Source: Mrakia gelida (taxonomy: Eukaryota > Basidiomycota > Tremellomycetes > Cystofilobasidiales > Mrakiaceae). Taken from it: a DNA stretch of 64,000 nt. The position numbers were made by a program, and so were the translations under genes. This document shows, one piece after another, positions 15,036 to 44,969 of this stretch. The notes beneath the pieces were generated by a model. It made no database searches, was not told the DNA's origin, and worked only from the letters and a program-made list of their open reading frames with translations. The stretch is from the NCBI GenBank assembly GCA_024345305.1, contig BRON01000016.1, positions 434,001 through 498,000 on the forward strand. Reading direction: 5' to 3'. How positions within the stretch are numbered: position 1 is the first letter of the stretch; each line of letters begins with the position of its first letter.

Positions 15036-15070
15036 TAAAACATATATATCCCCGAGTCCAGCAGGGTTCA
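15036..15070 (-). promoter_or_regulatory. Conserved pheromone-gene 3' block, copy 1
   Basis: In gene sense it reads CCTGCTGGACTCGGGG followed by an AT-rich ATATATATGTTTTAACGA-like run. It lies about 120 bases after the stop of the 15.2 kb pheromone gene, and the same block follows every other copy. It is probably the 3' end or poly(A) region. Confidence 0.7.
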
Positions 15071-15191
15071 ACCTCGACGACGTTCCATCAAAGCCGCAGG
15101 TCAATCTGAAAGAGAGCAAGAAGACGAAAGTCAGTGAGCTGAGACCATGAGATGATGGCATTGAAGTAGAGGAGACTCACTATGACTGAGT

Positions 15192-15317
15192 TTAGGCGAT
15201 GGTGCATCCGTAGAATCCAGACGACGAGCAGACGGCCTTGGCCTCGACGGAGGGAGCGGTGGTGGTCTCAGCGGCGGAGGCGACGAAAGGAGTGAAGATG
15301 GCAGAGAAGGCGTCCAT
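15192..15317 (-). CDS. Lipopeptide mating pheromone precursor, class B (solitary copy)
   Basis: The precursor has 41 residues, starts MDAFSAIFTPFVASAAETTT and ends AVCSSSGFYGCTIA. The last four residues are a CaaX box (CTIA), the signal for farnesylation, AAX removal and carboxymethylation of secreted basidiomycete pheromones. The coding part is a single exon. A short intron follows the stop (donor GTGAGT about 12 bases after TAA), then the shared downstream block. A TATA box (TATAAAA on the minus strand) is at 15427-15421, about 105 bases upstream of the ATG. This is the only pheromone gene without a divergent partner. The exact N-terminus of the mature peptide is unknown. Confidence 0.88.
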   Translation of the reverse strand: MDAFSAIFTPFVASAAETTTAPSVEAKAVCSSSGFYGCTIA

Positions 15318-15420
15318 GTTGAAGAGTGAGGGGTTTGGAAGGAAGGTGGGTAAGGAAGGAGTGGATTGAGGAGTTGAAGGTAGTGGTTGGAGGATAAGAG
15401 AGGAGGGCGCGAGCTCAAGT

Positions 15421-15614
15421 TTTTATAGGAGTTTCGAGGCCTCGGGTTGATCCTTGTACGCTTTGGGACAACGACTGAAACGAGCAGGAGATGTAGATGG
15501 TTCTCTTCTTGAACAAGGATTCAAGGGTCAGACGCTGAGGATGAAAGGGAAAGAAGGTCGTCGTTCGATCAGCCCCGTGTTTCATTGACAGCGTCGCGCG
15601 CAGAGCTCCTTTGT
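15421..15614 (-). promoter_or_regulatory. Promoter of solitary pheromone gene
   Basis: Three elements are visible. A TATA box lies at 15421-15427 (read on the minus strand). The shared motif AGCCCCGTGTTTC is at 15571-15583. A reversed pheromone-response-like element TCCTTTGT (ACAAAGGA) is at 15607-15614. The motif-then-CTTTGT order matches the three divergent promoters. Confidence 0.65.
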
Positions 15615-15887
15615 TCTTTTCTTCTGCTCCCTTATCGTTCGTTTGAGCCTGCATCGCAGCGGTCTCTCCCGATTTTCGAGCATTCCTGGATCCACTGTTC
15701 GAGTCTGAAGATAGAGAGCAACTTCGAAACGCCTTCCCCTGCAAAGTGCTCGAAACGAGACAGGCTCGCCTCGGCACTCTTCGTTCTTGAGTCTTCTGCT
15801 TCGAGCTCTTGCCCTCTTGCTCTGAGAACGAATGAACATAAGACCCAAGCTACTCATCTAGTAATGCCTTCACTTCCCTCCGCATAT

Positions 15888-17198
15888 CTAGCTCTTCACA
15901 ACCTCCTCCTGCTCCTGCTTCTTCTCCCAAACCGCCCTCTCCAAGCTCACCCACTTCTCCTCCAGTCCAAAGATCCCAAACTTCTTCCCTCCCTTCGCTC
16001 CCTTAGGTCCCTGCCACGACTCCTCGAACCCCTCCTTCTTCAGCACCGCTCCGATCAACTGCTTCGTGGGCGAATCGATAGCGAAGATCTCCTCGACCTG
16101 GTTCGATTCGGTGAAGGTGTGTTGGAGAGCGTGCTCGAGAAGATCCGCCGAAGTGGTCGCGTTCTTGTAGAGGAGGTCGACGTGGAAGTGACGGATTCGG
16201 GCTTGGGAGGTAGGGACCAGGGGATAGGTGGGGAGGGTGTCCTTCTTGGTAGCCGCGTTGGCGTTGGCTCCTCGTTTCTTGACCGACGACGACTTGGACG
16301 CGACGGCGTTGGAGTTTCCCTTCGACTCCTCGGCAGCCTTCTTGTCCTCGAGCTCGGTCTTGTTGACTTCCGATCCAAGGATGCTCTCGAGGTCCTCTCC
16401 TGGTCGAGCGGCGTCGATGGCGATGCATCCGATGATGGCTGAGCGGTGGGAGTAGACGAAGAAGGACGAGGAGGGAGAGAGGGAGTAGAATTCGGGGATG
16501 GAGTTGAGGTCACGGAGTCCGAGGGTGATTCGGAGGAGGGACTCGAAGTATTGACGATGTTGCCTGTGGGGAGGTGAGAAAAAGGAGAGAAGGAGAGACG
16601 TGGAGGTGAAGAGCGACGCGAGGCGGGAGAGGAACGTGGTCAGTTTGAGCTCGAGCGGTCAGAGTAACCGGAATTTTCATTTGACGAACCATTCGAAAGC
16701 GACCATGATAGGGACGGCGAGGAGGAAGAAGGCCTGCAAAAGGAAAGATGATGGTGAGCTTGAGCTTGAAGAGCGAGGAGGGAAGACGGGAACTCACGAA
16801 GGTAGGCGAGAACCACGAGAGGTAGAGATCAGCCTGAGGCCACCAGTTCATGAGGTGAATGAAACCCAGAGATGAGGCGATCCAGACGAGGATGGTATTA
16901 GGGTTCGAGTAGGCTGAAGAGCAGGAGAACGAAGGTCAGCTCGAGCAAGGGAGGGACGGGAGGGAGAGGTCGAAGCTCACCGAGCTTGTTGGTGGCTTTG
17001 AGGGGACGTAGAGAAGGGAAGAGGTCAGCTAAAGCTCTCAAACTACTTCCAGCCCGAAGAGTGGATACTAGACTCACATGCGAGCTGTTCCATAACTCCA
17101 GCACCGACGAGAAGCTGAACCTGCTTCAGGTCTGAGGGACGGTAAGGTCGGATTCCGTCTCGGTCGCCTTCCGTGTTCTCGAGCGTGTGGGCAGACAT
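15888..17198 (-). CDS. Two-TM membrane protein with GNAT-like C-terminus, PHO86-like
   Basis: The start is MSAHTLENTEGDRDGIRPYR at 17198. Residues about 50-110 contain two hydrophobic segments (TILVWIASSLGFIHLMNWW; FFLLAVPIMVAFEWFV). The C-terminal half looks acetyltransferase-like (SSFFVYSHRSAIIGCIAIDA; RIRHFHVDLLYKNATTSADLLEHAL; LIGAVLKKEGFEESW). This layout recalls the Pho86 family of ER proteins needed to export phosphate transporters, but that match is from memory and a membrane-anchored N-acetyltransferase is the alternative. It ends in QEEVVKS with TAG at 15890-15888. There are at least four introns. It is divergent from DCN1. Confidence 0.6.
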
Positions 17199-17623
17199 AG
17201 AAGCTGAGTTTGGAGCTGGAAGTGTCGAGAGTGGATAGAGGCGAGGATAGAGAAGTACTTTTGAGGGTCGAGAAGCTGGTGGTTGGCGGTGAGGTGGTGA
17301 AAACTCGAAGGATGGAATCTAAATTGGTCGGAACGAGCTCACACGACCACCACGTTCGTGAACTCGACCCGATCGCGTCGCTTTCGAGCCTCGACGAAAC
17401 CCCTTCCAGCAGCTTCTTTTAGAGATAAGATTGAGCTGAGGATGTTGACTGGATTTTCTCTGCGAGAAGATTTGAGCGAAAACAGGCGAGGCGAGCGGAA
17501 AGGACAGAGAGAAGGCGCTCGCTCTTTGAAGGGGAAGTGGTGAGCTCGACGGTCCTCCCAAACACTCATCCTCTTCTCACAGCTCCAGGAGCCTCTTTCT
17601 TCCCTCTTCTCACTCTCTCAGCC
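17199..17623. promoter_or_regulatory. Divergent intergenic region PHO86-like / DCN1
   Basis: These 425 bases separate two divergent start codons and presumably hold both promoters. No TATA box or known operator was recognised. Confidence 0.45.
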
Positions 17624-19446
17624 ATGGTTAGTGAGCCGCCTCCTCGATGCTAGCGCCAAAGATGTCGTTCTCGCTATCCTTCGCTGCCTTCTCGTGCTGA
17701 CCTTCTCTCCTTCCCATCGCCTCCACCGTCTCTCCCTCGTTTCCTCTCCAGTCCTCCGCTAAGAAGCTCACAGCTACTGATCAGAAACGTCTCACCGAAC
17801 AACTACAACAACTCACACACGCCACGTAAGTTTCTTCCTCGTTCTTCATGTTCTCTCGACGACAGGAGCTGTCAAAGGACGTTCATCGCTGACTCCTTCT
17901 CCTCCCCTCCTCCCTCCTCCCTTCGCTTCTTCGTCCATCTTCAGTACCACGGATGCCAACCGAATCCTGAAAGCTTCGCGCTGGGATATCAACGTTGCCG
18001 TCGAAGCTTTCTTCCAGGACTACGCTGCACAGGAGAACGCGAGTGCTCGAGGAGGAGACGCTGCGAAGAGGGAAGCGAGAGATCAGAAGCTGAAGGCCAT
18101 CTTCAAGACCTACGAGGGTGAGTCTCGCGTTCTTTCTTGCGTCCTCGATTCTCGACAGAGAGACTCTCTGTCGAGATGCCGTCCTGAAGGCCCTGGAGAT
18201 GGGTCTGAACGAGCAACGACGAAGCGAGATGTGAGCTCGACGAAGAAGGAGGAGGTGGAGCGCTGACCTTCCCTTCCCTTCCTTATCCTCTCTCTTCCCT
18301 CAGACCCCAAGTCGCCAGGTCAGGTCACTGTCCAGACCATCTCAGACTACTTCGGAGCCATCGGAATCGAGGACATGGACACCGACGTCGCCGTCTACAT
18401 CGTCTCGTACGAGCTCAAGTCTCAATCGCTGGGTGACCTCGAGCTCAAGAGCTTCTGCGAGGGTTGGGGAGCTCTCAAGTCAGTTCAAGACCTTTTTTCC
18501 TCTCCTTTCAACTCTCTCTGGATGCTCTGCTCTTTTGCCTCACAGCTTGAAGCAGAAAAGTCGCTCAAAGAAAGCTCGAAGCTGACCCTCAACTCCTTCC
18601 CTTCGCTCGACCGTCGCAGAGTCGACTCGATCCGAGGGATGGCCAACCAGGTTCCTCTCCTCAAGAAGAAGTTCCTGACCGATCCCGAGTACTTCAAGAA
18701 GGTCTACAAGTTTGTGTTCGAGCTCGGCAAGGAGGACGGAGCTAAGGTCGTTGGTGAGTTTTTGAGCTTGCTCGCTCGCTTCTCCTTCCTTCATCTCCCT
18801 CGTTCCAGCTCGCTCGCGTCTTCTAACGCTGATCACCTCTTTTTCCTTTTTTTCTTCCAGTTCGGGAGATGGGTACGCATCATTTCCTCTCCCTGTCTCC
18901 TTTCCGATCTCGTTCTCTCGACTGACTCCTCCTCATACCTCGTTACCTCGTCCTCGTCGCGTTCAAACAGCCGTCGCCTTCTGGCAATGCCTCCTCCCTC
19001 CAGTCTTCGAGTCCAAACCCTCCGCCATCGTCTACAGCACACCCAACGGAGAGCCAGGGATGGGAGCGAGGGAGTTCGGGTGGTGGTGCGAGTTCTTGGA
19101 GGAGAAGGCCGTGAAGGGAGTGTCGAAGGATCTGTGGCATCTGGTCAGTCGCTCGCGTTCCGTTCAAACCCTCTTTCCTCTTCTCCCTCCTTCACGTCGC
19201 TGACTGCTCCCTTCGTGGGGGTCATCGCAGTTCATCGAGTACGCAGCCAAGATCCCGAACAGCTACGACGTTTACGACGATGATGGTTCGTCCCTCTCTC
19301 CTCATGCTCGCTTCCCTCGTTTGGCCTCGTCGCTGACTCTCCCCTCGTTCGTCGTGTGAACAGGAGCCTGGCCCTCGATCCTGGACGACTTCACCGAGTA
19401 CGCCAAATCGCGGAGAACCAAAGAGGGAGGAATGGACCTGTCGTGA
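17624..19446 (+). CDS. DCN1: DCN1, cullin neddylation factor
   Basis: Dcn1 is an E3-like scaffold that helps Ubc12 attach NEDD8 to cullins. The coding sequence starts with an exon holding only ATG (17624-17626), followed by an intron to 17751. Exon 2 begins SSAKKLTATDQKRLTEQLQ. A UBA-like domain follows (NRILKASRWDINVAVEAFF). The PONY domain comes next, with DYFGAIGIEDMDTDVAVYI, SFCEGWGAL, WHLFIEYAAKIP and the closing acidic DDDGAWPSILDDFTEYAK, which contacts cullin. It ends GGMDLS with TGA at 19444-19446. There are about eight introns, and length and domain order match the family. Confidence 0.94.
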
Positions 19447-20034
19447 TTCGATTTTCTCGTCCTCGTTCTCTTGCTCGCTCCAAATCGTCGCTCGTTTCCC
19501 TCGGTCGCGCGAGGAAGAGGGAAGGAGAGTGAGTTGCTGGTTGGGTTGGGTGGTTTACGTATGATGCTTTTCTCTCTCATTTGCTTTTTAACGTTACACG
19601 TATCATGCTAGTTTAGTTCTCTCGCGAGGAGTCGAGCAAGAGAGGGAGAGCTCAGGACGCGTCTCGCTGATCGCCGTCGTTCTGCCTTCCTATCTCTCGG
19701 CGACCATACGACAACCCAAGCTTCGAGCGCTCTCGAGTCATTTGTCGAAGGAAGAAGCGTGAAGCGAGATCATCGACATCTCTCGACTCGCACGTCGAAA
19801 CCAAACACTACCACGTCCACGACGTCTACTCTAATCTAGATCTATACTAACCCCTCCCCTCCCCACCTCCCTCCTCTATATACGTCCATCCCGTCCATTC
19901 ACCCATCGAGCACTTCGTTTAAGCGGGCAAACAAACAAGACTTCAGACTCTGACGCGTCTCTCCATCCTTCCCGTCCCTCCCGTCCGTCCAGGTTGAGCT
20001 CGTCCAGGGGCATCGACGAGGATGCAGATGCGTA
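19447..20034. other. Convergent intergenic region
   Basis: These 588 bases between DCN1 and the next minus-strand gene show no coding exon. A pyrimidine-rich stretch (19850-19900) and simple 3' flank sequence are all that is visible. Confidence 0.4.
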
Positions 20035-22159: not shown

Positions 22160-22469
22160 TTTCAGCCAGTCAGAGAGACGGCAACTCTTTCTTCGTCGAG
22201 AAGGTCAAGAGAAGAAGACTGGTCATAAAGAGGTAGTTAGGGCTCGTAAATAGACGATGGTAAAGATATGGAGGGGGAAATCATACGACGATGGGGCGTG
22301 TAGGGGGGATATAGCGTGAAGGAGCGAGACCCGAATCCAAGAAAGACGAACAGGCGAGACACTACTAGAACAGGAGGAAAGAACCATTGAGAAATAGAAG
22401 GAGAAACGTAGCTCGTATATGCGAAGAGATGTAAAGCAAAGCAAAATCAAAACAGAGAGGGACGAGAGA
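22160..22469. other. Intergenic between two minus-strand genes
   Basis: These 310 bases form the 3' flank of the upstream gene and the promoter of the next. Nothing specific was recognised. Confidence 0.4.
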
Positions 22470-28937: not shown

Positions 28938-28969
28938 GCAAACATAAATATCCCGAATCCAGCAGGTCT
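28938..28969 (-). promoter_or_regulatory. Conserved pheromone-gene 3' block, copy 2
   Basis: In gene sense it reads CCTGCTGGATTCGGG then ATATTTATGTTT. It lies downstream of the class B pheromone gene at 29108-29233. Confidence 0.75.
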
Positions 28970-29107: not shown

Positions 29108-29233
29108 TTAGGCGATGATGCATCCGTAGAATCCAGACGAGGAGCAGACAGCCTTAGCCTCGACGGAGGGAGCGGTGGTGGTCTCAGCGGCGGAGGCGAC
29201 GAAAGGAGAGAAGATGGCAGAGAAGGCGTCCAT
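29108..29233 (-). CDS. Lipopeptide mating pheromone precursor, class B
   Basis: The precursor has 41 residues. The N-terminus is MDAFSAIFSPFVASAAETTT and the C-terminus is AVCSSSGFYGCIIA with CaaX box CIIA. It differs from the 15.2 kb copy at a Thr-to-Ser change near residue 9 and in the CaaX box. A short intron lies just after the stop (donor GTGAGT near 29093), then the shared 3' block. It is divergent from the class A copy at 29760, and the two start codons are 526 bases apart. The basal element is CATAAAG instead of TATAAAG (29341-29335 on the minus strand). Confidence 0.9.
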   Translation of the reverse strand: MDAFSAIFSPFVASAAETTTAPSVEAKAVCSSSGFYGCIIA

Positions 29234-29759
29234 GTTGAAGTTAAGAGGAGAGGGTTTGGGGTTGAGGAGTGAAGGAGAGGAGTGAAGTGAAGGTAGTGGT
29301 TGGAGGATAAGAAGAGGAGAGCGCGAGCTCGAGTCTTTATGGGGATTTCGAGCTCACCGAGAGGACGTTGTTCTCGTCGATAACAGCATTGAAACGAGTA
29401 AAGAGGGGTCAAAGGCGAGGGTGCTCGGCAATGAAGAGGAAAGAGAGCGAGTCAAAGGGAGGAAGGTCGATCGACGCGTTCAGCCCCGTGTTTCAGCGCG
29501 AGCTTCCTTTGTTCTCCTTCTTTCTCGTCTTCTTCCGGCGATTTTCGTCCTGTATCGTATGTCAATTCTAGAAGCTTCTTCTCCTGATCGTTTCGGCTCT
29601 CTTTTCGTCGGCCCTTTGTGCAGAGGGGCCAACAAAGGGAAAACGAAGCACTATAAAGATCCGAGGTCGAGAGACTCTCTTCACCTCCAACCAACACTTC
29701 CAACTCCTCTCTTCACTCCTTCCTCTACCCACCTTCCTTTCAAACCCCTCACTCTCAAC
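29234..29759. promoter_or_regulatory. Divergent pheromone promoter 1
   Basis: Both pheromone genes of the pair share this region. The 13-base motif AGCCCCGTGTTTC lies at 29482-29494. ACAAAGG-type elements lie at 29506-29513 (reverse), 29612-29619 (reverse, CACAAAGGG) and 29632-29640 (forward, ACAAAGGGA). A TATAAAG box at 29652-29658 serves the right gene. ACAAAGGG is the pheromone response element bound by HMG regulators such as Prf1 and Mat2 in other basidiomycetes. Confidence 0.8.
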
Positions 29760-29885
29760 ATGGACGCCTTCACCGCTATCATCTCTTCTTTCGTCGCCAC
29801 CGCCGCGGTCGAGTCCACCAACTCCCCCGTCGAGGAGGCGAAGAGGTCGACCGGAGCCAACGCTCTCATGTGTATCATCGCCTAA
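29760..29885 (+). CDS. Lipopeptide mating pheromone precursor, class A
   Basis: The 41-residue precursor begins MDAFTAIISSFVATAAVEST and ends KRSTGANALMCIIA, with CaaX box CIIA. Likely processing is farnesylation of Cys, removal of IIA, methylation, and N-terminal cleavage near the Lys-Arg/Ser-Thr region. The last step is inferred from position only. The TATA box is 102 bases upstream of the ATG. The stop (29883-29885) is followed by an intron in the 3' untranslated region at 29894-29971 and a weaker version of the shared 3' block near 30016-30045. The nearest downstream gene is STE3. Confidence 0.92.
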   Translation: MDAFTAIISSFVATAAVESTNSPVEEAKRSTGANALMCIIA

Positions 29886-30045: not shown

Positions 30046-30599
30046 GGCCCTCTACTTTCTTCTGCGAAAGTTCTCATCCTCTCATCACTTTCTCGGCGGA
30101 TTGGAGTCGAGATGCGAACGAGCATCCGTCGTCGACCAAAGTCGACGCGTCCGATCACTTCATCTCGTCCCCTTTTGCGTCCACTCTGGCGCCTCATCGA
30201 TCGCACTCGAGGAAGATACTGGAATCAGGCCCTCTCCGGTTTCATTGATCTCGCTTCACCTCAACAGTTGACTTTGCGAGCTCGCGATCGCGACGCGTGT
30301 GGCTCGTACTGTTGTGAAGAGAAAGGAGCGTCGAGCTGGTCGGCGAGAAAGATCAATTTGGAGATACAGGAAATCAATTAAGCCGACTCTGAAGATGGGG
30401 AGAACAACGACGCAGCAGGTTGGAAGAGAGTCGAGAAGCAGCAGAGGAGGAGGGGAAGGGTCGGTTGGTTCAGGGTCGATCTACAGGAGATGAAGCAGAG
30501 AACAATGTGAAAAGGAGCGATGGAAGATGAGTATGAGCGGAAGGCGCTCGCTCTGCAAGGGAGATACATAGGAGACGCGCGTACATAACAAGCATGGTT

Positions 30600-30862
30600 C
30601 AAGGCAACAAAGGGAGGAAAGCAGGAGGAGGAGGAGGTCGAAGCTCGCGCTCGAAGCGGACGAGGAGCAAGCAGCTTTGCTGCTGAGCCTTGGCTGAGCG
30701 AAGTACATGAAGCTGAGATCATTTTGTTTCGGAAATGGTCTCCCTATATATGAAGAAGTCTCGGTAACAAAGGATATGGCATCCGAGACGGTGAAAGAAA
30801 GAATCACTCGAAGCGGAATCAAAGAGGCGATCGAGCTGCGACCTCCCCTTGTTCTCTTTGTT
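30600..30862 (+). promoter_or_regulatory. STE3 promoter with pheromone-response-like elements
   Basis: ACAAAGGGA at 30607-30615 is an exact match to the pheromone response element known from smut fungi. A second site ACAAAGGAT lies at 30767-30775, and a reversed CTTTGT at 30856-30861. A TATATA run at 30745-30750 may be the TATA box. These sites lie 130-380 bases before the receptor ATG and match those of the pheromone promoters. Confidence 0.65.
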
Positions 30863-30988
30863 CTGTCCGTTTCATCCTCAACCTCCTCCAACTTTCACAA
30901 TGGAAGCTGACCTCTTTTGACCTTCAACCACCAGCATCCTCTCTAGCATACACACAGCTCTTCCACCTCCTCCACTCCTCCCCTCGCT

Positions 30989-32392
30989 ATGCACGACACC
31001 CTCTTCATCGTCTACGCTGCCGTCGCCTGCCTCCTCCTCCTTATCGCTTCCCCTCCTCACTGGCGCTCAGCAAACGTTGGAGCTATCTGTCTCGTCGTCT
31101 GGGCCTTCGTAGGGTCTCTGGGATACTTCGTCAACGCCATCGTCTGGTGGGACAACGTTGAAAATCCCTCGCCTGTCTGGTGCGACATCTGTGAGCTCGA
31201 CCGCTCCTTCCTTCCCTCCCTCTGTTTCTCGAGCTCACTCCTTCTTCTTCTCGCTGCTTCAGGGACCAAAATCAGCGTCGCCCTCACCACTGGTATTGCC
31301 TCAGCATGCGTAGTCGTCAACCGTCGCCTCAAAATCATCTCGTCGGCAAGAAGATCGTCACTTTCCCCCTCAGAGCGTCGATGGAGTTTCTGGATCGACG
31401 TCGCCATCGGAGTCGTCCCTCCTGTCTTCGTTATGGCGATTTCCTACACCGTCCAGGGAAACCGATTCGACATCAGGGAGGGATCGGGATGCATTCCTGC
31501 TACCTACACCGATTGGAAGGCCATCCTTGCGATCTATGTCCCTCCCCTGCTCCTCGGAACGGTCTCGTTCGTCTACGGAGGTTCGTCGTCGCTTCCTTTC
31601 TTTCTCTACCCGCCTTCTCCTCGAGCTAAACTTTCCTCGCTTTGTTCCGCAGGTCTCTCCATCTTCAACTTCACCTCCCGTCGTCGTCAGTTCCAATCGG
31701 TCCTTCAACAATCCGGAGGAGGTCTCAACACGTCGAGGTTCGCTCGGCTCATCGCTCTCTCCTCCTTCGAAATGTTCCTCTCGGTCCCGCTCACGGCTTG
31801 GAGCATCGCCTACACGGTTCAAATCGCTCTTCAACCAAGTCTCAGCTGGAGCGACACCCACGCCGACTTCTCTCAAGTTTACGTCTTCGACGAGGCGGAC
31901 ATCCTCGCCAGTCCTCAGATGACCAGTGTCAACGGTCTGCAGCAGTGGATTCCGGTATTCGCAGCCTTCGCCTACTTCTGCTTCTTCGGAGTGCAGGAGG
32001 ACGCGTTGGTCTCGTACTGGTCTCTGGTGAATCGATTGAGGGGGGTGAAGTTTGGAAAGAAGTCCGGATCAGTCGCGTGAGTTCTCTCTTTCTTTCTTTT
32101 CTCCTCCTCGCCTTCCGGACGACCATTCTGACCTCAGCTATCTCTTCGACCTCTCTATAGCTCAACCAAACTCGAAACCGACGACTTCCTTCGCGTCCCT
32201 CAGCTCGGAAACACCATCGGTCCCGTCAGCCCAACCAACCCTGGCTTCCCAAATCGTTCGGCGGAGGATCTTGAGAAGGGAGGACTCTCGTTGACGGTCA
32301 CGGAGGATGGAGAGAAGGATCAGTCGCTGGGGTTCGGGCACAAGAAGTCGGGGATAGCGGTGAGGGTAGAGCGTAATATTGTCGAGGAGTAG
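30989..32392 (+). CDS. STE3: Pheromone receptor, Ste3 family (class D GPCR)
   Basis: Ste3 receptors sit in the plasma membrane, bind farnesylated pheromones and signal through a G protein to the mating MAPK cascade. The ATG at 30989 starts MHDTLFIVYAAVACLLLLIA, helix 1 of seven. Helices 2 and 3 follow (GAICLVVWAFVGSLGYFVNA; ISVALTTGIASACVVVNRRL), with the family text WWDNVENPSPVWCDIWTK between them. The Trp-rich middle (RRWSFWIDVAIGVVPPVF), SRFARLIALSSFEMFLSVPL and WIPVFAAFAYFCFFG complete the set. Introns are at about 31191-31262, 31581-31652 and 32077-32160, giving roughly 391 residues. The C-terminal tail is short and charged, ending VERNIVEE. Its ligand specificity cannot be read from the sequence. 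Confidence 0.94.
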
Positions 32393-32779: not shown

Positions 32780-34442
32780 CTATTTCGATCCGATCTGTAG
32801 ACGTCCTGCGGCTGTTTGAGCGAGCTGCTTGGTGTTTCCGAATCCGTAGAGGTAGTTCCTGAGAGAAGGGAAGACGCGAAGGAGAGAGAAGAAGCGTCAG
32901 TCGCGTGGACGAGACGAAGCCGAGAAGAGAGGATCGCGACTCACTTGTAGAACTCGTCCTCAATCTTGTCGTCGAAGAAGACTTTGCGCATCTTGAAGAA
33001 GGTGGCCGCCGTCAGTAGACTGTCACTTCCGGCTTGATGTTGAGGACCGATTCGAGCAACCTGAGAGAGAGCGAAGAGGCGAGAAAATCAGCGCGAGCTT
33101 GTGGAATGCGTGAGGTCGAGCTGTCGAGCGAGTTGGTTCTGCAGCTCCATCCGCGAAACACCTTCGAACGAGCAGAGGTGATCGCGAGCAATCTCGTCTG
33201 CCTGTCGACTGAAGAGAGAGTGTGCTCCCCTCCTGACCAGCGAGCTCGCGAGCTGCACGCGATTCAGCCCAAGCTGCTCGACTCGCCTCCCCTTCCGTCC
33301 CTCCCTCCGATGCTACCTTCCCAGCTCTTGCGCTCTCTGAGTGACTCACCTGCAGACTATCGGCGACATCCTGCAGTCCTCCTTTGAGACTCTTACAGCT
33401 CCTCATGATGTGCTTGATGTCGTAGATGTTTGGGAACCAGAGCTCGAGCAGCTCAAAGAACTCGGACTCGGTCGGCGGTAAGGGAGAGCAGGTGAGGATC
33501 TTGATGAGGTATCCGAAGTCGTATCCACTGAGTTGAGAAGAGAGAGAGAGGGCTGGTCAGCTTGTAGCAGTGGTGACGAAGGAGCGGGGAGCGAGAGGAA
33601 GGGGAGGAGGTCGAAGGGAGGAAGGAAGGGAGTGGCAGGTGAGCTCGAGAGGGAAAGAACGTACCTGTGGAACGAGACCCATTTCACGTCGTCGAAGAGG
33701 ACCAGCCCTGATGTGATGAGAAGCTCTCCGAAGTACTCGAGGTCGATTCCCTGCTCCTCGTGCCGTTTGAAGTCGATCCCAGACTTGGTGAGGAGCTCTA
33801 TCGATTCGGGAGCGGACATGTCCTCGCTTCGAAGCACAAAGAGAAGCACGAGAGCGATGAGTACACGAGTCGAGTGAAACAGAAGCGAGCGAGAAGGTCT
33901 ACTGACTTGATGTTGAACTTGAAGTTGAACTGCCAGGTGCAGGCGTCTGGGAGGTTTCCATCTTCGTCCGAGAGGGTCACTCCGAGCTGGATGAGACGAA
34001 GGATGTCGACGTTGCATCGCATGGTCTGGTAGTGGTAGTCGGCTCCGGTCTTGAAGTTACCCATCGGACGAGCTACGATCCCTGGAAACTCGGTGTCCTG
34101 GGGGAGGCAAAGGAAAGAGGATGGAGCAAGAGCGAAGGGAGGAGGTGAGGGAAGGAGGAAGGGAGGAGGTCAGGCTTCGCGGTCGGGTTGAGCTTCCTCC
34201 TCCGAGCTGAAGATGCCAGTGATAGATGAGACCGTACCCTGTAGTTCGAAGAAGCCATAAAGTAGGTCAGCATTACGTGGAAAGAGCGGAGGACCTGGAT
34301 CAAAGGAGGGAGAGCGAGGTCGACGGAGGCAAGGAGCTTACATCGAGACGACCGGAAACGAGTCGATAGCATTCCTCAGAGCGATGAGTTCCGATTCCAG
34401 GTTGTCGACCCAGACCTCATGAATCCTGCCAGCCGATGTCAT
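32780..34442 (-). CDS. POP2: CCR4-NOT deadenylase subunit CAF1/POP2
   Basis: Pop2/Caf1 is a DEDD-family 3'-5' exonuclease that shortens mRNA poly(A) tails in the CCR4-NOT complex. The start [20 protein letters not shown] is at 34442. The first DEDD motif follows (FPVVSM, then an intron, then DTEFPG-like text), and then [20 protein letters not shown]. Later blocks are [58 protein letters not shown] and [15 protein letters not shown]. It ends [20 protein letters not shown] then IGSK, with TAG at 32782-32780. There are at least seven introns. It is divergent from EMC5 with only 150 bases between the start codons. Confidence 0.95.
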
Positions 34443-35840: not shown

Positions 35841-35871
35841 TTAAAACATAAATATCCCGAATCCAGCAGGT
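35841..35871 (-). promoter_or_regulatory. Conserved pheromone-gene 3' block, copy 4
   Basis: In gene sense it reads CCTGCTGGATTCGGG then ATATTTATGTTTTAA. It follows the class A gene at 36006-36131 and its 3' untranslated intron. Confidence 0.8.
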
Positions 35872-36005
35872 CTACAAGCCTCAGCGACCTCTCGTCCGTC
35901 CATCAAGCCCAAAGTCGTCTGAAAGGATGGAGAGAAGGAGGTCAGCCTCGAGATTTGGAGTCGAAGACGGTGAGGAAGGAGGAGAGAACACTCACGAGAC
36001 GTTGT

Positions 36006-36131
36006 TTAGGCAATGATGCACATGAGAGCGTTAGCTCCAGTCGACCTCTTAGCCTCCTCGACGGGGGACTGGGTGGACTCGACGGCGGCGGTGGCGACGA
36101 AAGAAGAGAAGATAGCAGTGAAGGCGTCCAT
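36006..36131 (-). CDS. Lipopeptide mating pheromone precursor, class A
   Basis: The 41-residue precursor begins MDAFTAIFSSFVATAAVEST and ends KRSTGANALMCIIA (CaaX box CIIA). Its protein is identical to the copy at 44000-44125 and nearly identical to the one at 29760. An intron follows the stop codon. At the usual TATA position the minus strand reads GCACAAAGATCC instead of CTATAAAGATCC, so the TATA box appears lost while the surrounding bases are kept. It is divergent from the class B copy at 36695. Confidence 0.92.
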   Translation of the reverse strand: MDAFTAIFSSFVATAAVESTQSPVEEAKRSTGANALMCIIA

Positions 36132-36694
36132 GTTGAGAGTTGAAGGTTTGGGAAGGAAGGTGGGTAGAGGAAGAGGAGTGGAGTGAGGAGTTGAAGGTAG
36201 GGGTTGAGGGAGAAGGAGAGTGCGACGCGTCCGGATCTTTGTGCACTTTCGCTTTCCCTTGTTCGCCTCTCTGGACAAAGGGCCGAGAAGAACAAGAACC
36301 GAAACGAAGCAGGAGAAGAAGCTTCGAGAAACATCCACTCGCCTGAAGCTCGAGGAAGACGAAGGCTGAAAACGAAGAGAGAGGGAGAACAAAGGGAACG
36401 ACGCGCGAAACACGGGGCTGACCTTTCTTCCCTTTCATTCTCTGCCTTTCCTCTTGATTGCTTCCAAATTCCTCACCTTTGATCCTCTGCTCCCGTTTCA
36501 CTGACTGATTCATCGATCTAGGCCCTGGACGTTGTCCGGATGCAGAACAAAGGGGCGTTTCGTCGATGCGTCGTCGAAAGAAAGGGTATAAAGTCCTCGC
36601 TCTCGACGCTTCTCATCTTGTCCCCCAACCACTACTACCTCACTCCTTCACTCCTCTTCTTCACCCAACCCCAACCCACTCTCTTTACTTCACA
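36132..36694. promoter_or_regulatory. Divergent pheromone promoter 2
   Basis: ACAAAGGG elements lie at 36275-36282, 36389-36397 and 36547-36555, all on the plus strand. The shared 13-base motif lies on the minus strand at 36407-36419, exactly midway (about 276 bases) between the two start codons. TATAAAG at 36587-36593 serves the right gene. This promoter is inverted relative to divergent promoter 1. Confidence 0.8.
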
Positions 36695-36820
36695 ATGGAC
36701 GCCTTCTCTGCCATCTTCACTCCTTTCGTCGCCTCCGCCGCTGAGACCACCACCGCTCCCTCCGTCGAAGCCAAGGCCGTCTGCTCGTCGTCTGGATTCT
36801 ACGGATGCATCGTCGCCTAA
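36695..36820 (+). CDS. Lipopeptide mating pheromone precursor, class B
   Basis: The 41-residue precursor begins MDAFSAIFTPFVASAAETTT and ends AVCSSSGFYGCIVA (CaaX box CIVA). The body is identical to the 15.2 kb copy except for the CaaX box. The TATA box is 108 bases upstream of the ATG. An intron in the 3' untranslated region runs 36831-36929, followed by the shared 3' block. It is the partner of the class A gene on the opposite strand. Confidence 0.91.
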   Translation: MDAFSAIFTPFVASAAETTTAPSVEAKAVCSSSGFYGCIVA

Positions 36821-36969
36821 ATCTAGTCTTGTGAGTTTGCCTCTCCTCTCTTCTCTTCTTTCGCCGTAAACGCCCACCCCGAAACGCGACGCTGACCCTC
36901 CCCTTCTCGCTCTCTCTTCTCTTCCTCAGTTGACTATGGGTTTCGCCAGGGCCGTTCAAGATGTTTGAT

Positions 36970-36998
36970 CCTGCTGGATTTGGGATATTTATGTTTAA
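36970..36998 (+). promoter_or_regulatory. Conserved pheromone-gene 3' block, copy 5
   Basis: It reads CCTGCTGGATTTGGG then ATATTTATGTTTAA, about 40 bases after the 3' untranslated intron of the class B gene. Confidence 0.78.
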
Positions 36999-37192
36999 AC
37001 GACTCTAAACTACTCTTCTCGTCTTCTCCTGAAAGATCTACGTTCGCGAAAAGAAGCAACGAGCAAGCTTCCAGCCGTCGACTCACGGTCGACCTTGTCG
37101 CTCTCCTCCCTCCCCCCTCCCGAGAAAGCACAGAAGCGAGATACACTTTCATTCCTCATCTCATCTTCAGATCTACCAGCCCAAGCCCAACC

Positions 37193-40100: not shown

Positions 40101-41428
40101 GAGAGATAGAGAGTGGAAGGCGAACTCACTGAATCAAAGGTGTAAGCCAACACCGTACCCTGATCTTGCTCCGTCTTCAAAACCTCAGCCTGCCCGTCCT
40201 TCTTGATTCCGAGAAAGTAGCCCTCCTTCTCGAGGCCCAGAGCTTGGAGAGAGGTGAAAGCTGAGAGGCTTCGTTGGGGCTTGGGGCTGGAGGTCTCAAG
40301 AGAGAGGGTGTAAACGGACTCGTTCTCGAGCCAGACGAGGGAGGATCCAGTGACGAGGAAAGAGGTTGGGGAATCGATGGAACCGAAGTGTCCTGGGGAG
40401 GTGATGATCTCGGAGGTGGTAGGGTTGAGACGAAGGGTTTTGAGAGCGTAGCCGGTGAAGGTGTTGACTGATCCGACGAGAGAGAGGTGGTTCGAGGAGA
40501 GGACGAGTCGAGACCAGAGACTGGCAGGGAGAGAGGGGAAGGGTAGGAGGTGGTGAGCTTCGACGAAGAGGGAAGTCAATCGTTCATCTCCTCCTCCCGT
40601 CCTTCCTCCTAAGTCAACGGCCAGGGACAAGGACTCACGAGTCACCACCCGTCTTGTAGCTCCAAACAATCGAACCAGTCGTCCCGTCGAGCTTGTAGAC
40701 GTCCGACGCGTCGACAAGCACGAAGAGCGATCCATCCTCCGCGAAGGCGACGTCCGAGAGAGATGCGACCTCTGCGTCTCGAGCACTGTCGCTGGAAAAG
40801 TTGAAGGCCGTCTCCCAGATGAAGTGACCGGTCACTGAGTCGATGAGACGAATGGAGCCTCCCTCGAGGGTGGTGGAGAGTAGGACGATGGTGGCTGAAC
40901 GAAGGGAGGGAAGGAAGGGGAGGAGGGGAAGGTGAGCTTGAGCTTCGAGCTCAGCGATCAGCTCGGAGACAGAGGCAGGGCGCTTACCTGAAGATGGAGA
41001 GGAGTGATAGCTCTGGGCAACCTCTCCTTCACGAAGTTGATGCCGCCAGTCTGTAAGAGAAGAAGGAACACAGGGCGAAAGGGGTAGCGAAGGAAGGTGA
41101 GCTCGACCATCTCGCTGGCGCGACCTCCCTCCTTCAAGCCCTCCTTTGTCTCAAGCTGAGACTCACTGATGTTTCCAAACGAAGGATCTAAGGACGCGAC
41201 TACGTTGCTTTTTGTTATTGTCACTATCGAAGTTGAGTTTGCTCCATCTGTCGAAGGGAGAGGGACGAAGGAAGGAGCTGTCGCTGAAGAGTGAAGGAGA
41301 GGGATTCCGATCTTGGGCTGATGCCAGTCGATAACTCCAGCGAGATTCGATTGAAGCCCAAGTGCTAAGTGAGGGAGGGAGATGAGGAAGGTCGCCAGCA
41401 GACTGGAGGAGGAGATTGAAAGTCGCAT
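37193..41428 (-). CDS. EMC1: ER membrane protein complex subunit 1 (EMC1)
   Basis: EMC1 is the large luminal beta-propeller subunit of the ER membrane insertase. The start MRLSISSSSLLATFLISLPH at 41428 is a signal peptide, followed by SNLAGVIDWHQPKIGIP, the hallmark EMC1 start of the mature protein. PQQ/WD-like propeller repeats follow (TGHFIWETAFNFS, LSDVAFAEDGSLFVLVDASD, YKLDGTTGSIVWSYKTGGDS, VQLYEHGQLRFTKEESLADI). The C-terminal DUF1620 region contains LDPKRTLSHAYE and a final membrane helix (FNKAQLVLTILGLSVGIVAV). The tail KPIVERKKSRAKWF ends with TAG at 37195-37193. There are more than ten introns. It lies tail-to-tail with the class B pheromone gene and head-to-head (112 bases) with the MYND gene. 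Confidence 0.93.
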
Positions 41429-41540
41429 CTCGAGTGGAGATGAGGGTGAGCACTGAAAGAAAGGAAGGAAAGCGAAGCTCAACCTCCTTCGCTCAAAACC
41501 GTCACTCGCACTCCTCCCTTCCCCCTCCCTCTCTTCTTGG

Positions 41541-42840
41541 ATGGTCTCGCCTCAAGTTCTAGAATTTGGTCGGATCTATGGCTTCTCACCCGAACTCGAT
41601 GGTCCTACTCCCGATGTCGCTTCTCTCGAACAGCTCGAAGAGTATCGGGAGCTTCACGTTCGTCCGACCTTCCCTCCCTTCCCTCCTCTTCAGCTCTCGA
41701 CCTCTCTTCAACGCTAACGCTCTCTTCTTCAACTTCGCAGTCTAAGATGGCGAACGCGGATAAAGATGGCTTTTGGGTCAGCTCCTCTCAGAGAGGACGA
41801 GTTCACGAGAAGAGGAAAAGGAAGACGGAATCGCTGACCTCTTGCGTCTCTCTTTCTTTCCCCTCCCTCTCCCAGGCAGAAGTCTCAGCTGAATACCTCC
41901 CCTGCATCCTCAAAACGGCCATGAAGACTCGACCTCTCACCTCCTTCTACGAGGACTTCGTTTATCTCGCCAACCACCTCAGGCTGAAGGCAGACCTCCC
42001 GTACGAGCATCGATTCGTGAGGGATCATCCTGAAGAGGCCCTCGCCTTTCACCTCTTCCTCAGGGAAGCGATCTACACGATGCCCGACGAGGCCTACGAT
42101 GTCAGTAGCCTGTTCCTCCATCTATCTGTCTCTGTCTCTCTCTCTCCACCTATGCGGCTCTGACGAAATCACTGTTGTTCCGCCTCATCGTCGAACCAGA
42201 TCATAAACGGAGAGAGCGTCTTCTCACCAGTCCTACGCTCCTTCGGCATGGCCCTTCACCTCAGCTTCACCTCCCTGTACTTCGCCTACCCCGGATCCTC
42301 CTTCCCCTTTCCCAAAGAACACGCCCTCCCTTCCACCGAGCAGATCTCAAGCATCCGTCGGCTCGTCGAGAGGGTCATCGCCTCGCCGGATCTGGAGCTC
42401 TCGCCGGACGACTTGGAGGCTCTGTTGGACCTTCCGGAGGATATCAACCACATGTCCCGCTTGGATCCAGTAGCGGGGAGGGAGCAGTCAAAGCCTGAGC
42501 GATGGGAGGCTTGCGAGTGGGCTTCGGTCGAGGAGCAGCAAGGAAGGAAGGTCGAGTGTGAGAGGTTTGGGGAGGGGGAGGAGATGATGACTTGTGGTCG
42601 GGTAAGTCGGCTCGCTCAGCTTTCTTGGGATATGTGCTGGATTGCTGACTTCCTTCGATGTCGTTGTCCCAGTGCAAAACCGTTCGATACTGCTCGCGAG
42701 GCGAGTTGACGCGTCCGATTCCTACCTCGCCGACAGCTCGTTCTGATCTCGTCTCTCCTTACTTCTTGACCTCCTTCTCAGACCACCAGCGAGCGGGCTG
42801 GACGGAACACAGAGACTTCTGCTTCAAGACGAGTTGGTGA
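41541..42840 (+). CDS. MYND zinc-finger protein
   Basis: The start is MVSPQVLEFGRIYGFSPELD at 41541. Most of the protein is helical and unrecognised (YLPCILKTAMKTRPLTSFYE, FVYLANHLRLKADLPYEHRF, FHLFLREAIYTMPDEAYD). The C-terminus is a MYND finger: the first Cys pair is CGRC, followed by KTVRYCSRDHQRAGWTEHRD and FC, with TGA at 42838-42840. MYND fingers bind Pro-rich peptides in repressors and assembly factors. Without a SET domain the role stays unknown. The last intron (42701-42781) must use a GC donor to rebuild the finger. At least five introns are present. Confidence 0.85.
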
Positions 42841-43837
42841 GGGGAGGTGTGTGAGATCGAGAGCGAGTGGTGAGTCTCGAGTCTTCGCCTTCGCCTTCGC
42901 TCTCGGCTGCTCGCCCGAACTGACGACGACGATTTTCTGTCCTTTACGTTCCCTCCAGCTCTCCGAGGGATACCAGGGGCCTATATCAGCTGGCTGGCGA
43001 GGTAAGTCCGACCTTCCGCTCTCGATGGTTGACGACTGAAAGAGGACCGTAGCTCGAGACGCGTCGAGCTCGAGGGCGAGCGACGTCGCGAGCATCAAAA
43101 TGGCTCGACGAGCTGACTCTCCCCTTTCTTTTTCTCCACCAGACTCCGATCGAATACACTACGCTCTTCCATATCGGAGCGTGAATGCTACCTCAGCTGC
43201 TCTCAAAGGCAAGTGCATCGCGGCTGATCTCCCTTTCTCGCTTTGTCTTCGAACGGACGCTGAGTTTGTCACTCCTCTTCTTCTTCCCTTCCTCAGGACT
43301 ACTCTCGTAGATCGGATCTAGATTCTCGTCGTCGGTGAGATCAGGTGGACGGAAACTCACTTCGAGGACGGAGTTCGACGGTTCGTTCGTTCATCCTTCG
43401 TTTGTTCGTTCGCTCGTCTCGTTTCTCTCTTCCCCCGCCCACTTTCCGACCCTCTTCTTCTGCTCTTCGGACTCCCCAGCTGACTCTAAAACTCCCGTCT
43501 TTCTCCTCCACCTCTCGTCCAGTCTCTCTTCGAACTCTCGAACGAACATCAAGCAAACGACGACGCGAGATCGCTGACTCGCTTTGGGAGACCCGTCGTC
43601 GGTTTGGCTTTTCGTTCGGTAGACTAGACGCTTTCTCACCGCTCTCAACTTATCTGAAGATGCTTCGCTCGACGAAACCTGATGAGGAAGACGTGACGGA
43701 ACGCGAGGGAAGAAGGGAGTCGTGGACGATGAACGAGAAGAGAAGTCGAAGGTCGACGACGCTTGAGTAGGACATTTTTCCTACTTTCTTTCTCAAGAAC
43801 CTTCCTTAGCCGAGAAGCAGAGCGAGAGTTCAGGTCG
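42841..43837. other. 1 kb without a clear gene, but with splice-like signals
   Basis: Between the MYND stop and the 3' block of the next pheromone gene there is no conserved protein. Several intron-like units do appear: GTGAGT near 42869 to CAG near 42958, GTAAGT near 43001 to CAG near 43141, and GCAAGT near 43209 to CAG near 43297. The exons between them are not open in one frame. This may be a spliced 3' untranslated region, a non-coding RNA or a decayed gene. Confidence 0.35.
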
Positions 43838-43868
43838 TAAAAACATAAATATCCCGAATCCAGCAGGT
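43838..43868 (-). promoter_or_regulatory. Conserved pheromone-gene 3' block, copy 6
   Basis: In gene sense it reads CCTGCTGGATTCGGG then ATATTTATGTTTTTA, downstream of the class A gene at 44000-44125. The preceding 40 bases (ACGACTTTGGGCTTGATGG in gene sense, the start of the last exon) also match copy 4. Confidence 0.8.
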
Positions 43869-43999
43869 TCAACCTCAACGACCGTCCATCAAGCCCAAAG
43901 TCGTCTGAAAGGGAGTCAAAAGGAGGAGCAGGTCAGCTCGGAGCTCCCAAGTCTCGAGAAAAACGAACGATCAAGAGAAAACACTCACGATGACTCCGC

Positions 44000-44125
44000 T
44001 TAGGCAATGATGCACATAAGAGCGTTAGCTCCAGTCGACCTCTTGGCCTCCTCGACGGGGGACTGGGTGGACTCGACGGCGGCAGTGGCGACGAAAGAAG
44101 AGAAGATGGCAGTGAAGGCGTCCAT
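44000..44125 (-). CDS. Lipopeptide mating pheromone precursor, class A
   Basis: The 41-residue precursor is the same at protein level as the copy at 36006-36131: it begins MDAFTAIFSSFVATAAVEST and ends KRSTGANALMCIIA, with CaaX box CIIA. The minus-strand TATAAAA box is at 44239-44233, about 108 bases upstream of the ATG. The stop is followed by an intron in the 3' untranslated region and the shared 3' block. It is divergent from the class C copy at 44675. Confidence 0.92.
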   Translation of the reverse strand: MDAFTAIFSSFVATAAVESTQSPVEEAKRSTGANALMCIIA

Positions 44126-44674
44126 GTTGAGAGCGAAGTAGAGTTTGGGTTGGGTGGGTGAAGAAGAGGAGTGGAGTGAGGAGTTGAAAGTAGTGGTTGG
44201 AGGAAAGGAGAGGAAGGAGCGGGAGGGAGAGGTTTTATACGATTTTTGGGCGAGGTTGTTCGAAGCCGAAACAGGCAGGAGCTGGTAGAGCGTCGGCGAA
44301 CAAAAGGAGGCTGAGAAAGGGGAAGTAATCAAGAGGAAACAGGCTTCGGATGAAAGGGAGAGAAATCGAACGACTGGTGGGGAGTGATCGACCCCTGACG
44401 AGCGTGTTTCATCGCGTCCTCCCTTTGTTCTTTCCTTCGATTCGGTGGGTTCTTGCGTTTTGGAAGACCTGCTTCGATTTTGGACGCCTCCGTTCTTTTT
44501 TCCTCCCCTTCTCCTGACCGTTTCATCCTTGTTCTGTCTCTCGAACAACGCCAGCATCCAAACCTATAAAACCTCGACGTCCCTCCCTCCTCGTTCTTAT
44601 CCCCAAACCACTACCTCACTCTACTACTCTCCTCTCTTCACTCTTTCCCTTCCAAACCAACCCAAATTTTCAAC
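44126..44674. promoter_or_regulatory. Divergent pheromone promoter 3
   Basis: A reversed ACAAAGGGA element lies at 44420-44428. A partial copy of the 13-base motif (CCCC, then an 8-base gap, then GTGTTTC at 44404-44410) sits about midway. TATAAAA boxes face outward at 44233-44239 (minus) and 44575-44581 (plus). Confidence 0.75.
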
Positions 44675-44797
44675 ATGGACGCCTTCACCGCTATCTTCAC
44701 TCCTTTCGTCGCCTCCGCCGCTGAGACCACCACCGCTCCCGTTGAGGAGGCGAGGGCTTCCACTGGACCTACCTTCGCTTTCTGCACCATTGCCTAA
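44675..44797 (+). CDS. Lipopeptide mating pheromone precursor, class C
   Basis: The precursor has 40 residues, one fewer than the others. The N-terminus MDAFTAIFTPFVASAAETTT matches class B. The middle VEEARASTG resembles class A, and the end PTFAFCTIA is unique, with CaaX box CTIA. The predicted mature peptide therefore differs from both other classes. The TATA box is 100 bases upstream. An intron runs 44809-44898 after the stop, followed by the shared 3' block. Its mosaic structure suggests recombination between A and B copies followed by divergence. Confidence 0.9.
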   Translation: MDAFTAIFTPFVASAAETTTAPVEEARASTGPTFAFCTIA

Positions 44798-44935
44798 ATC
44801 GAGTCTTTGTGAGTTTTATCTTCATCCCTCTGGCTTCATATCTTCTCTTCACTCTGCTCGAATGCTGACCTCGACCTCGTCCTTTCCCTCTCCCTCAGAC
44901 GATTCTTGGGCCGGAGCTTTTCTTGGGAGTCGCAG

Positions 44936-44969
44936 CCTGCTGGAGTCAGGATATTTATGTTTTAACGAC
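44936..44969 (+). promoter_or_regulatory. Conserved pheromone-gene 3' block, copy 7
   Basis: It reads CCTGCTGGAGTCAGG then ATATTTATGTTTTAACGA after the 3' untranslated intron of the class C gene. Confidence 0.8.

What the first reader, a model, noticed from the sequence alone, without database searches (positions are those of the whole stretch)
15036..44969. P/R mating-type region with seven CaaX pheromone genes around a Ste3 receptor
Seven open frames of 40-41 codons share MDAF(T/S)AI and end in CIIA, CIVA or CTIA. All have the same promoter and 3' architecture, and a Ste3-type receptor lies among them. Known: basidiomycete pheromones are short CaaX lipopeptides, and the MDAFTAIF start resembles Cryptococcus MF genes. 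Inference: this is the pheromone/receptor locus, spread over about 30 kb and interspersed with housekeeping genes. Automatic gene callers would probably miss every one of these short genes.
Basis: partly seen in the sequence, partly recalled or inferred. Interest (0 to 1): 0.92.

Follow-up and report, generated by a model that had tools for sequence, protein, structure and literature searches.

The report
Expanded two-receptor fungal mating-pheromone locus
This is the mating-pheromone region of a yeast close to Mrakia, with twelve intact pheromone genes and two receptors in one genome, a layout that suggests the fungus can mate with itself and offers a second case for testing how that evolved.

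Summary
On the same contig, five more intact pheromone genes, one frameshifted copy and a second Ste3 receptor (70% identical) follow within 21 kb of the window's end. The P/R region is about 70 kb, with 12 intact pheromone genes: one single gene and six divergent pairs (one pair includes the frameshifted copy), start codons 526-576 bp apart.

The closest named receptors are two Mrakia frigida proteins. One HD1/HD2 pair lies on another contig. Two receptors plus one HD pair is the layout of homothallic Phaffia rhodozyma (PMC4915694), where each cluster's pheromone activates the other cluster's receptor. My best reading is a strongly expanded, self-compatible P/R locus; self-compatibility is inferred, not shown, and a mushroom-like multi-receptor heterothallic haplotype remains possible. 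Copies of one pheromone class differ mainly at synonymous sites. Pheromone upstream regions are enriched for the ACAAAGG core, and 7 of 12 genes carry a 3' element that a genome-wide pattern search found only there.

The parts
15192..15317 (-). pheromone precursor gene 1 (class ending ...CSSSGFYGC-TIA); the only one without a divergent partner
   Evidence: no convincing relic of a partner in 449318-451500 (best hits 11-22 bases, E>=0.076)
15318..15867 (.). upstream region of gene 1, with an AACAAAGG site (15608, minus strand)
29108..29233 (-). pheromone precursor gene 2 (class ...CSSSGFYGC-IIA), divergent pair with gene 3
29234..29759 (.). 526-bp shared upstream region of genes 2 and 3, three ACAAAGG sites
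29760..29885 (+). pheromone precursor gene 3 (class ...STGANALMC-IIA)
   Evidence: 1 mismatch to the start pattern
30389..30988 (+). 600 bp upstream of STE3-1 with two AACAAAGG sites (30606, 30766)
30989..32392 (+). STE3-1 pheromone receptor, exons 30989-31190, 31263-31580, 31653-32076, 32161-32392, 391 aa
   Evidence: same model found by script; PF02076; 7 hydrophobic segments
36006..36131 (-). pheromone precursor gene 4 (class ...STGANALMC-IIA), divergent pair with gene 5
36132..36694 (.). 563-bp shared upstream region of genes 4 and 5, three ACAAAGG sites
36695..36820 (+). pheromone precursor gene 5 (class ...CSSSGFYGC-IVA)
44000..44125 (-). pheromone precursor gene 6 (class ...STGANALMC-IIA; protein identical to gene 4, 4 synonymous codon differences), divergent pair with gene 7
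44126..44674 (.). 549-bp shared upstream region of genes 6 and 7, one ACAAAGG site
44675..44797 (+). pheromone precursor gene 7 (class ...STGPTFAFC-TIA, the class that prevails around the second receptor)
28940..28962 (-). 3' element CTGGATTCGGGATATTTATGTTT of gene 2
   Evidence: genome-wide: 7 sites, all 7 lie 3' of pheromone genes
35844..35866 (-). 3' element of gene 4
36974..36996 (+). 3' element of gene 5 (1 mismatch)
43841..43863 (-). 3' element of gene 6
44940..44962 (+). 3' element of gene 7
17624..19446 (+). non-mating gene inside the region: cullin-binding (DCN1-like) protein
   Evidence: PF03556, 100.5 bits
26403..28699 (+). non-mating gene: MT-A70 family protein
   Evidence: PF05063, 116.9 bits; 320 of 550 residues scanned
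32780..34442 (-). non-mating gene: CAF1 family ribonuclease
   Evidence: PF04857, 82.4 bits
37193..41110 (-). EMC1 copy, part of a segment (37194-43082) that is also present inverted about 60 kb upstream
   Evidence: PF07774, 222.6 bits; C-terminal 215 of 911 residues scanned

Best explanation
Each pheromone gene makes a 40-41 aa precursor. It is expected to be farnesylated at the CaaX cysteine, trimmed of the last three residues, cut near EAK(R/A), and exported as a lipopeptide of about 9-12 residues. Two Ste3 GPCRs in the same genome, STE3-1 in the window and STE3-2 about 38.5 kb downstream, sense these peptides. Ste3 signalling then raises transcription of the pheromone genes and STE3-1, through ACAAAGG-type pheromone response elements upstream. 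[quoted passage not shown] By that model the FYGC-class peptides, found only around STE3-1, would activate STE3-2, and the FAF/VLF peptides, which prevail around STE3-2, would activate STE3-1. A single HD1/HD2 pair elsewhere would act after fusion or self-activation. SHOWN by sequence: the genes, their number, order and classes, the two receptors, the HD pair, the shared motifs, and the excess of synonymous changes within classes. INFERRED: processing, PRE function, which peptide activates which receptor, and homothallism. My estimates: P/R locus 0.97; self-compatible P/R 0.6; the stated cross-pairing 0.35.
For: Two PF02076 receptors at 279.5 and 280.2 bits; a genome search with that family gave four exon-level matches, all in these two genes. 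They are 70% identical (277 of 394 columns), with dN/dS 0.20/0.63 by NG86 and 0.17/1.77 by YN00. Twelve intact precursors, all on one contig, control 0. In 11 of 13 within-class gene pairs synonymous codon differences outnumber nonsynonymous ones; the CaaX cysteine is invariant in the 10 distinct precursors. Predicted mature ends are identical within three classes: FYGC 3 of 3, ALMC 3 of 3, FAFC 4 of 4. Pair spacings 526, 563, 549, 576, 570, 528 bp. ACAAAGG: 10 sites in seven pheromone upstream regions against 0.36 expected, 2 before STE3-1, 2 in 26 control promoters; ACAAAGGGA is the PRE drawn for smut P/R loci (PMC3248468, passages). One divergent HD1/HD2 pair, no second copy found with the HD2 query. 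A gene with PBD and kinase domains lies past the last pheromone gene, its PBD about 8 kb away; PMC5103461 puts STE20 near STE3-2 in Phaffia (passages). Phaffia: two P/R clusters, one HD pair, reciprocal activation (PMC4915694, sections 6, 8 and part 1 of 12).
Against: No expression or mating data. PRE counts come from related promoters, so the printed P values overstate independence; STE3-2's upstream 600 bp has no ACAAAGG, nor has the pair with the frameshifted copy. Classes do not sort cleanly by cluster: one FAF gene sits on the STE3-1 side. The receptor tree does not decide whether the duplication predates the split from M. frigida (no pairing rejected). The 70% receptor identity exceeds the about 50% of Phaffia, so two specificities are less certain. 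A frameshifted copy shows some decay. STE3-2's four-exon model is mine; the script preferred three exons and 417 aa, and a hydropathy scan passed only 5 segments in STE3-2. The HD1 model breaks off at in-frame stops. Other PBD genes exist on C18, C5 and C6, so calling the C16 gene STE20 is unproven. STE12 is on the same contig but over 600 kb away.
Confidence: 0.62

Rival explanations
1. A heterothallic, mushroom-like multi-receptor P/R haplotype. The haploid carries two receptor/pheromone modules, none of its own pheromones activates its own receptors, and other strains carry different alleles.
For: Several pheromone classes around one receptor recall mushroom B loci (recalled). PMC4915694 considers this model for Phaffia and sets it aside because MAT sequences were very similar across strains. 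Receptors up to 80% identical can still differ in pheromone binding in Coprinopsis (same paper).
Against: About one-third of described Cystofilobasidiales are homothallic (PMC8545103, section 5 part 1), and the two-receptor, one-HD-pair layout matches homothallic Phaffia. M. frigida also has two receptors, listed with equal contig length.
Confidence: 0.25
2. One mating-type haplotype with redundant duplicates: the second receptor and the extra pheromones are dosage copies of the same specificity, as for multiple MF copies in Cryptococcus, and mating needs another strain.
For: Receptors are 70% identical and may be sisters (S1+S2 clade not rejected, p-AU 0.226). In Cryptococcus MF copies are often divergently arranged, and in C. 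deneoformans additive (PMC12510652, section 19).
Against: The pheromones fall into at least four classes with different C-termini; Cryptococcus copies encode identical mature peptides (PMC12510652). Over all 66 pairs the last 12 codons differ mostly by nonsynonymous changes (372 against 98).
Confidence: 0.1
3. Assembly artefact: the two modules are the two mating-type haplotypes of a diploid or dikaryon joined head to tail.
For: One 6-kb segment (EMC1 and its neighbour) is present twice at 79-83% identity, one copy inside the region and one upstream of it.
Against: Otherwise a self-comparison of 144 kb (E<=1e-8, low-complexity filter on) shows only pheromone, receptor and EMC1-segment repeats plus a few others of up to 553 bp. 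A 6,250-bp gene between the modules occurs once in the genome (the only such gene tested), and no STE3 or precursor match lies on another contig.
Confidence: 0.03

Closest known systems
Phaffia rhodozyma P/R1-P/R2 locus (PMC4915694, PMC5103461)
   Same: Same order (Cystofilobasidiales); two STE3 genes in one genome, near each other, each with pheromone genes; one divergent HD1/HD2 pair on another scaffold; STE20 near the second receptor there, a PBD kinase gene near it here.
   Different: Phaffia has one pheromone gene per receptor, about 5 kb between clusters and receptors about 50% identical. Here: 12 intact pheromone genes in about 70 kb, receptors about 38.5 kb apart and 70% identical, with non-mating genes between. 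Reciprocal activation is shown in Phaffia, only inferred here.
Mrakia frigida STE3 pair (P0001, P0002) and pheromone-like protein P0011
   Same: Nearest receptors (66% and 67% identity); in a six-row tree they form one group with the two found here, support 100/100. P0011 shares the FYGC end up to the cysteine.
   Different: P0011 is listed with another contig length (447,299 against 602,898) and annotated with another C-terminus. I had no DNA of M. frigida, so its pheromone number and layout are unknown.
Cryptococcus P/R loci with multiple MF genes (PMC12510652)
   Same: Multiple CaaX pheromone genes, often in divergent orientation.
   Different: [quoted passage not shown] here 12 intact copies, several peptides and two receptors.
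Rust fungi with multiple pheromone genes and STE3 duplications on one haplotype (cited in PMC12510652, section 19)
   Same: Several pheromone genes, some encoding distinct pheromones, and duplicated STE3 on single haplotypes.
   Different: Far-off lineage; that paper says the full P/R structure there is incompletely resolved. I did not read the rust papers.
Cystofilobasidium capitatum and C. ferigula (PMC8545103)
   Same: Same order; C. capitatum is homothallic.
   Different: One STE3 and two pheromone genes (identical in C. capitatum; the authors say more may appear in better assemblies). Its abstract suggests a dispensable or constitutively active receptor.

Membership tests
Basidiomycete P/R mating locus | Ste3-type seven-helix pheromone receptor | tested here: met
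   PF02076 at 279.5 and 280.2 bits, cut-off 29.2. A simple hydropathy scan passes 7 segments in STE3-1 but only 5 in STE3-2.
Basidiomycete P/R mating locus | short pheromone precursors ending in a CaaX box near the receptor | tested here: met
   12 intact precursors of 40-41 aa on the same contig
Basidiomycete P/R mating locus | farnesylated secreted peptide, pheromone-induced transcription | not testable with these tools
   needs mass spectrometry and RNA data; PRE-like sites only
Phaffia-type primary homothallic MAT | two P/R clusters in one haploid genome | tested here: met
   No second haplotype seen; ploidy itself was not measured.
Phaffia-type primary homothallic MAT | a single divergent HD1/HD2 pair outside the P/R locus | tested here: met
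   C11: HD2 377281-379585 +, HD1 from 377133 -, its 3' end uncertain; PF00046 47.9 bits and PF05920 26.6 bits; no second HD2 copy (next E 0.185)
Phaffia-type primary homothallic MAT | P/R and HD genetically unlinked | tested here: inconclusive
   different contigs, but each shows telomere repeats at one end only (1,500 bases read at each end), so they could be parts of one chromosome
Phaffia-type primary homothallic MAT | each receptor activated by the other cluster's pheromone; self-fertility | not testable with these tools
   needs mutants or reporter assays
Trans-specific receptor alleles | each receptor closer to its counterpart in another species than to its paralogue | tested here: inconclusive
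   best six-row tree pairs S2 with P0001 at 79/87; the five other pairings were tested and not rejected; unresolved in the eight-row tree too

The most novel reading that the evidence does not exclude
A self-compatible P/R 'super-locus': two receptors and at least four classes of pheromone, kept as six divergent pairs plus one single gene, which turn the usual one-to-one mating switch into an internal many-peptide, two-receptor autocrine circuit in a homothallic yeast. It would be conserved in Mrakia and independent of, or ancestral to, the small Phaffia version, with a pheromone-only 3' UTR element that coordinates the copies after transcription.
Probability: 0.3. Interest if true: 0.7.

Novelty: new variant of a known kind. 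Interest (0 to 1): 0.5.

Why it matters
The molecular basis of homothallism in Cystofilobasidiales has been studied in two species, with different answers (PMC8545103, passages). A Mrakia-like genome with a Phaffia-like double locus, but strongly expanded, would help say whether the two-cluster state arose before the genera split. It also offers twelve natural pheromone genes of several classes against two 70%-identical receptors for mapping specificity. In the Tremellomycetes papers consulted the counts are 1 per mating type or allele (Kwoniella, Trichosporonales, Filobasidium), 2 (Phaffia, C. capitatum) and up to 4 per mating type (Cryptococcus).

Tried and rejected
Chance explanation: rejected (control 0; two unrelated CaaX-like frames in the window, and two more rows in the 144-kb scan, show that the CaaX end alone is weak evidence).

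Haplotype-concatenation artefact: not supported.

Divergent partner for the single gene at 15192: none found in the 2.2 kb upstream.

Receptor orthology with M. frigida: trees unresolved, no pairing rejected; columns supporting the three arrangements are 9, 6 and 5.

Solved structures: no sequence relative of STE3-1 at E<=0.001.

GC depletion as a sign of suppressed recombination: none clear in 6-kb steps (0.542 to 0.585 over the 144 kb).

Literature: searches on homothallism and pheromone receptors gave 56 papers, 25 listed; 'Mrakia + mating type + pheromone' 3; 'Cystofilobasidiales + STE3 + pheromone precursor' 6; pheromone response element terms 19, 15 listed; 'Mrakia + homothallic' 7; a five-term search with at least 4 terms 12, 10 listed. 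In these listings, and in the sections or passages read of eight papers (PMC4915694, PMC8545103, PMC7692969, PMC5103461, PMC12510652, PMC3248468, PMC9210288, PMC6730849), I saw no description of a Mrakia P/R locus. No paper was read whole, supplements were not read, and most subscription journals are not held.

Structure prediction was not run: family assignment was already decisive.


Full report
WHAT IS THERE. The seven frames of the finding exist as described: 40-41 codons, MDAF(T/S)AI start, CTIA, CIIA or CIVA end, and a Ste3 receptor between them. A CaaX-like end by itself means little, since the same scan returned five more rows from two unrelated frames. The shared start is decisive: with up to one mismatch it occurs 12 times in a 34.86-Mb, 25-contig assembly, always on contig C16, and never in the reversed control. 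The window is C16:434001-498000.

THE OTHER HALF. Five intact precursor genes lie beyond the window, at C16:501357-501479 -, 505661-505783 -, 506354-506476 +, 517998-518120 - and 518649-518771 +. A thirteenth copy at C16:502056-502183 + starts MDAFTA, after which its CaaX-bearing part is read in a different frame. A second STE3 gene lies at C16:503447-504877 +. The two receptors are 70% identical (277 of 394 aligned columns). With my manual splicing both have four exons; the script's model agrees for STE3-1 but gives three exons and 417 aa for STE3-2, so its last intron needs RNA evidence. The region runs from 449192 to 518771, about 69.6 kb.

ARCHITECTURE. In order: gene 1 (-) alone; a pair (-,+); STE3-1; pair; pair; about 22.6 kb without P/R genes; a pair whose + member is the frameshifted copy; STE3-2; pair; pair. 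The six start-to-start distances are 526, 563, 549, 576, 570 and 528 bp. Precursors fall into classes by C-terminus: CSSSGFYGC (3, all on the STE3-1 side), STGANALMC (3, all on the STE3-1 side), STGPTFAFC (4: one on the STE3-1 side, three on the STE3-2 side), and STGANVLFC and FTGASVLFC (one each, STE3-2 side, counted as one VLF class). Class names and cut sites are mine. Within classes, synonymous codon differences exceed nonsynonymous ones in 11 of 13 pairs; the exceptions are one FYGC pair (1 against 2) and the VLF pair (7 against 8). Two pairs of genes encode identical proteins with 4 and 3 synonymous differences. Across all 66 pairs the last 12 codons show 372 nonsynonymous and 98 synonymous differences, against 132 and 131 in the first 15 codons (its printed label says 16, but 45 bases were used). 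So the copies are kept as proteins, and the expected receptor-facing end is what varies between classes.

REGULATION. ACAAAGG occurs 10 times in the seven pheromone upstream regions (six pair spacers and 550 bp before the single gene) against 0.36 expected from the rest of the 144 kb. It occurs twice in the 600 bp before STE3-1, not before STE3-2, not in the spacer of the frameshifted copy, and twice in 26 control promoters of 600 bp. The P values printed there treat sites as independent, which duplicates are not. ACAAAGGGA is the element drawn for smut P/R loci (PMC3248468, passages); the exact 9-mer occurs 4 times in these upstream regions, out of 7 in 144 kb. After the stop, 11 of 12 genes show a donor-branch-acceptor set that looks like a 3' UTR intron; gene 506354 does not. 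A 23-base 3' element matches 7 sites genome-wide with up to 3 mismatches, all 7 lying 3' of pheromone genes, control 0; the five other genes have altered versions or none by this pattern. Its role is unknown; a poly(A) or stability signal is a guess.

THE HOST AND ITS MAT. The receptor search returned six proteins; the best are two M. frigida proteins (66% and 67%), both listed with a contig length of 602,898. In a six-row tree these and the two found here form a fully supported group against two metagenomic receptors, but the order inside it is not resolved, nor in an eight-row tree with a far outgroup. So the species is probably Mrakia or a close relative; I did not identify it further. A search with the precursors gave 14 relatives at E<=10, P0011 of M. 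frigida among them. A divergent pair on C11 has a homeodomain (PF00046, 47.9 bits) and a KN homeobox (PF05920, 26.6 bits), the HD2 and HD1 layout; my model of HD1 breaks off early. The HD2 query found no second copy (next E 0.185). Three other homeodomain matches (C8, C14 twice) were not studied, apart from C14:442921, where my script called no gene. C11 and C16 each carry telomere repeats at one end only, so linkage of P/R and HD is open. A gene with PBD and kinase domains lies at about C16:526-527 kb and below; it was cut out of a longer fused model for the scan. Other PBD matches lie on C18, C5 and C6. The STE12 domain is on C16 at 1,153 kb.

MECHANISM. In Phaffia rhodozyma two P/R clusters and one HD pair give primary homothallism, and deletion mutants show that each receptor answers the other cluster's pheromone (PMC4915694, sections 6 and 8 and part 1 of 12 read). 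The genome here has the same parts list, so I infer a self-compatible P/R. What argues for caution: receptor identity is higher than in Phaffia, classes are partly mixed between sides, and there are no population or phenotype data. The multi-allelic heterothallic model remains the main rival.

NOVELTY. CaaX pheromones, Ste3 receptors, divergent MF pairs and two-cluster homothallism are all known, and duplicated STE3 with distinct pheromones on one haplotype is reported for rusts (as cited in PMC12510652). New here, as far as the searches named in Tried and rejected show, is the combination and scale: 12 intact pheromone genes of several classes with two receptors in one tremellomycete genome, in or next to a genus whose MAT I found no description of. 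That is a new variant, not a new kind.

Noticed in passing
window 37194-43082 and C16:407010-412865 (window -26990 to -21135): A 6-kb segment with EMC1 and a weakly MYND-finger-like neighbour (18.8 bits, under the cut-off of 22.7) is present twice in inverted orientation, 79-83% identical, one copy inside the P/R region. Both give long EMC1 gene models, the window copy with a less certain 5' end; two EMC1 copies seem unusual to me (recalled).
   Followed up: partly
C16:502056-502183 (window 68056-68183): A frameshifted pheromone copy that looks mixed: middle part like the FYGC class (APSVEAK), C-terminal part like the ALMC class, hinting at recombination between copies.
   Followed up: partly
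3' of pheromone genes, e.g. window 28940-28962, 35844-35866, 43841-43863: A 23-base element (CTGGANTCNGGATATTTATGTTT) found 7 times in the genome, each time 3' of a pheromone gene; function unknown.
   Followed up: partly
window 60577-61107 and 61580-62123: A direct repeat of about 550 bp at 78% identity between predicted genes.
   Followed up: no
C16:1241362-1242861 and C11:1561606-1563105: TTAGGG telomere repeats at one end of each contig; the first 1,500 bases of each contig have none.
   Followed up: partly
P0011 (M. frigida, public protein): A pheromone precursor annotated as a 51-aa hypothetical protein without a CaaX end; its listed contig length differs from that of the two receptors.
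   Followed up: no
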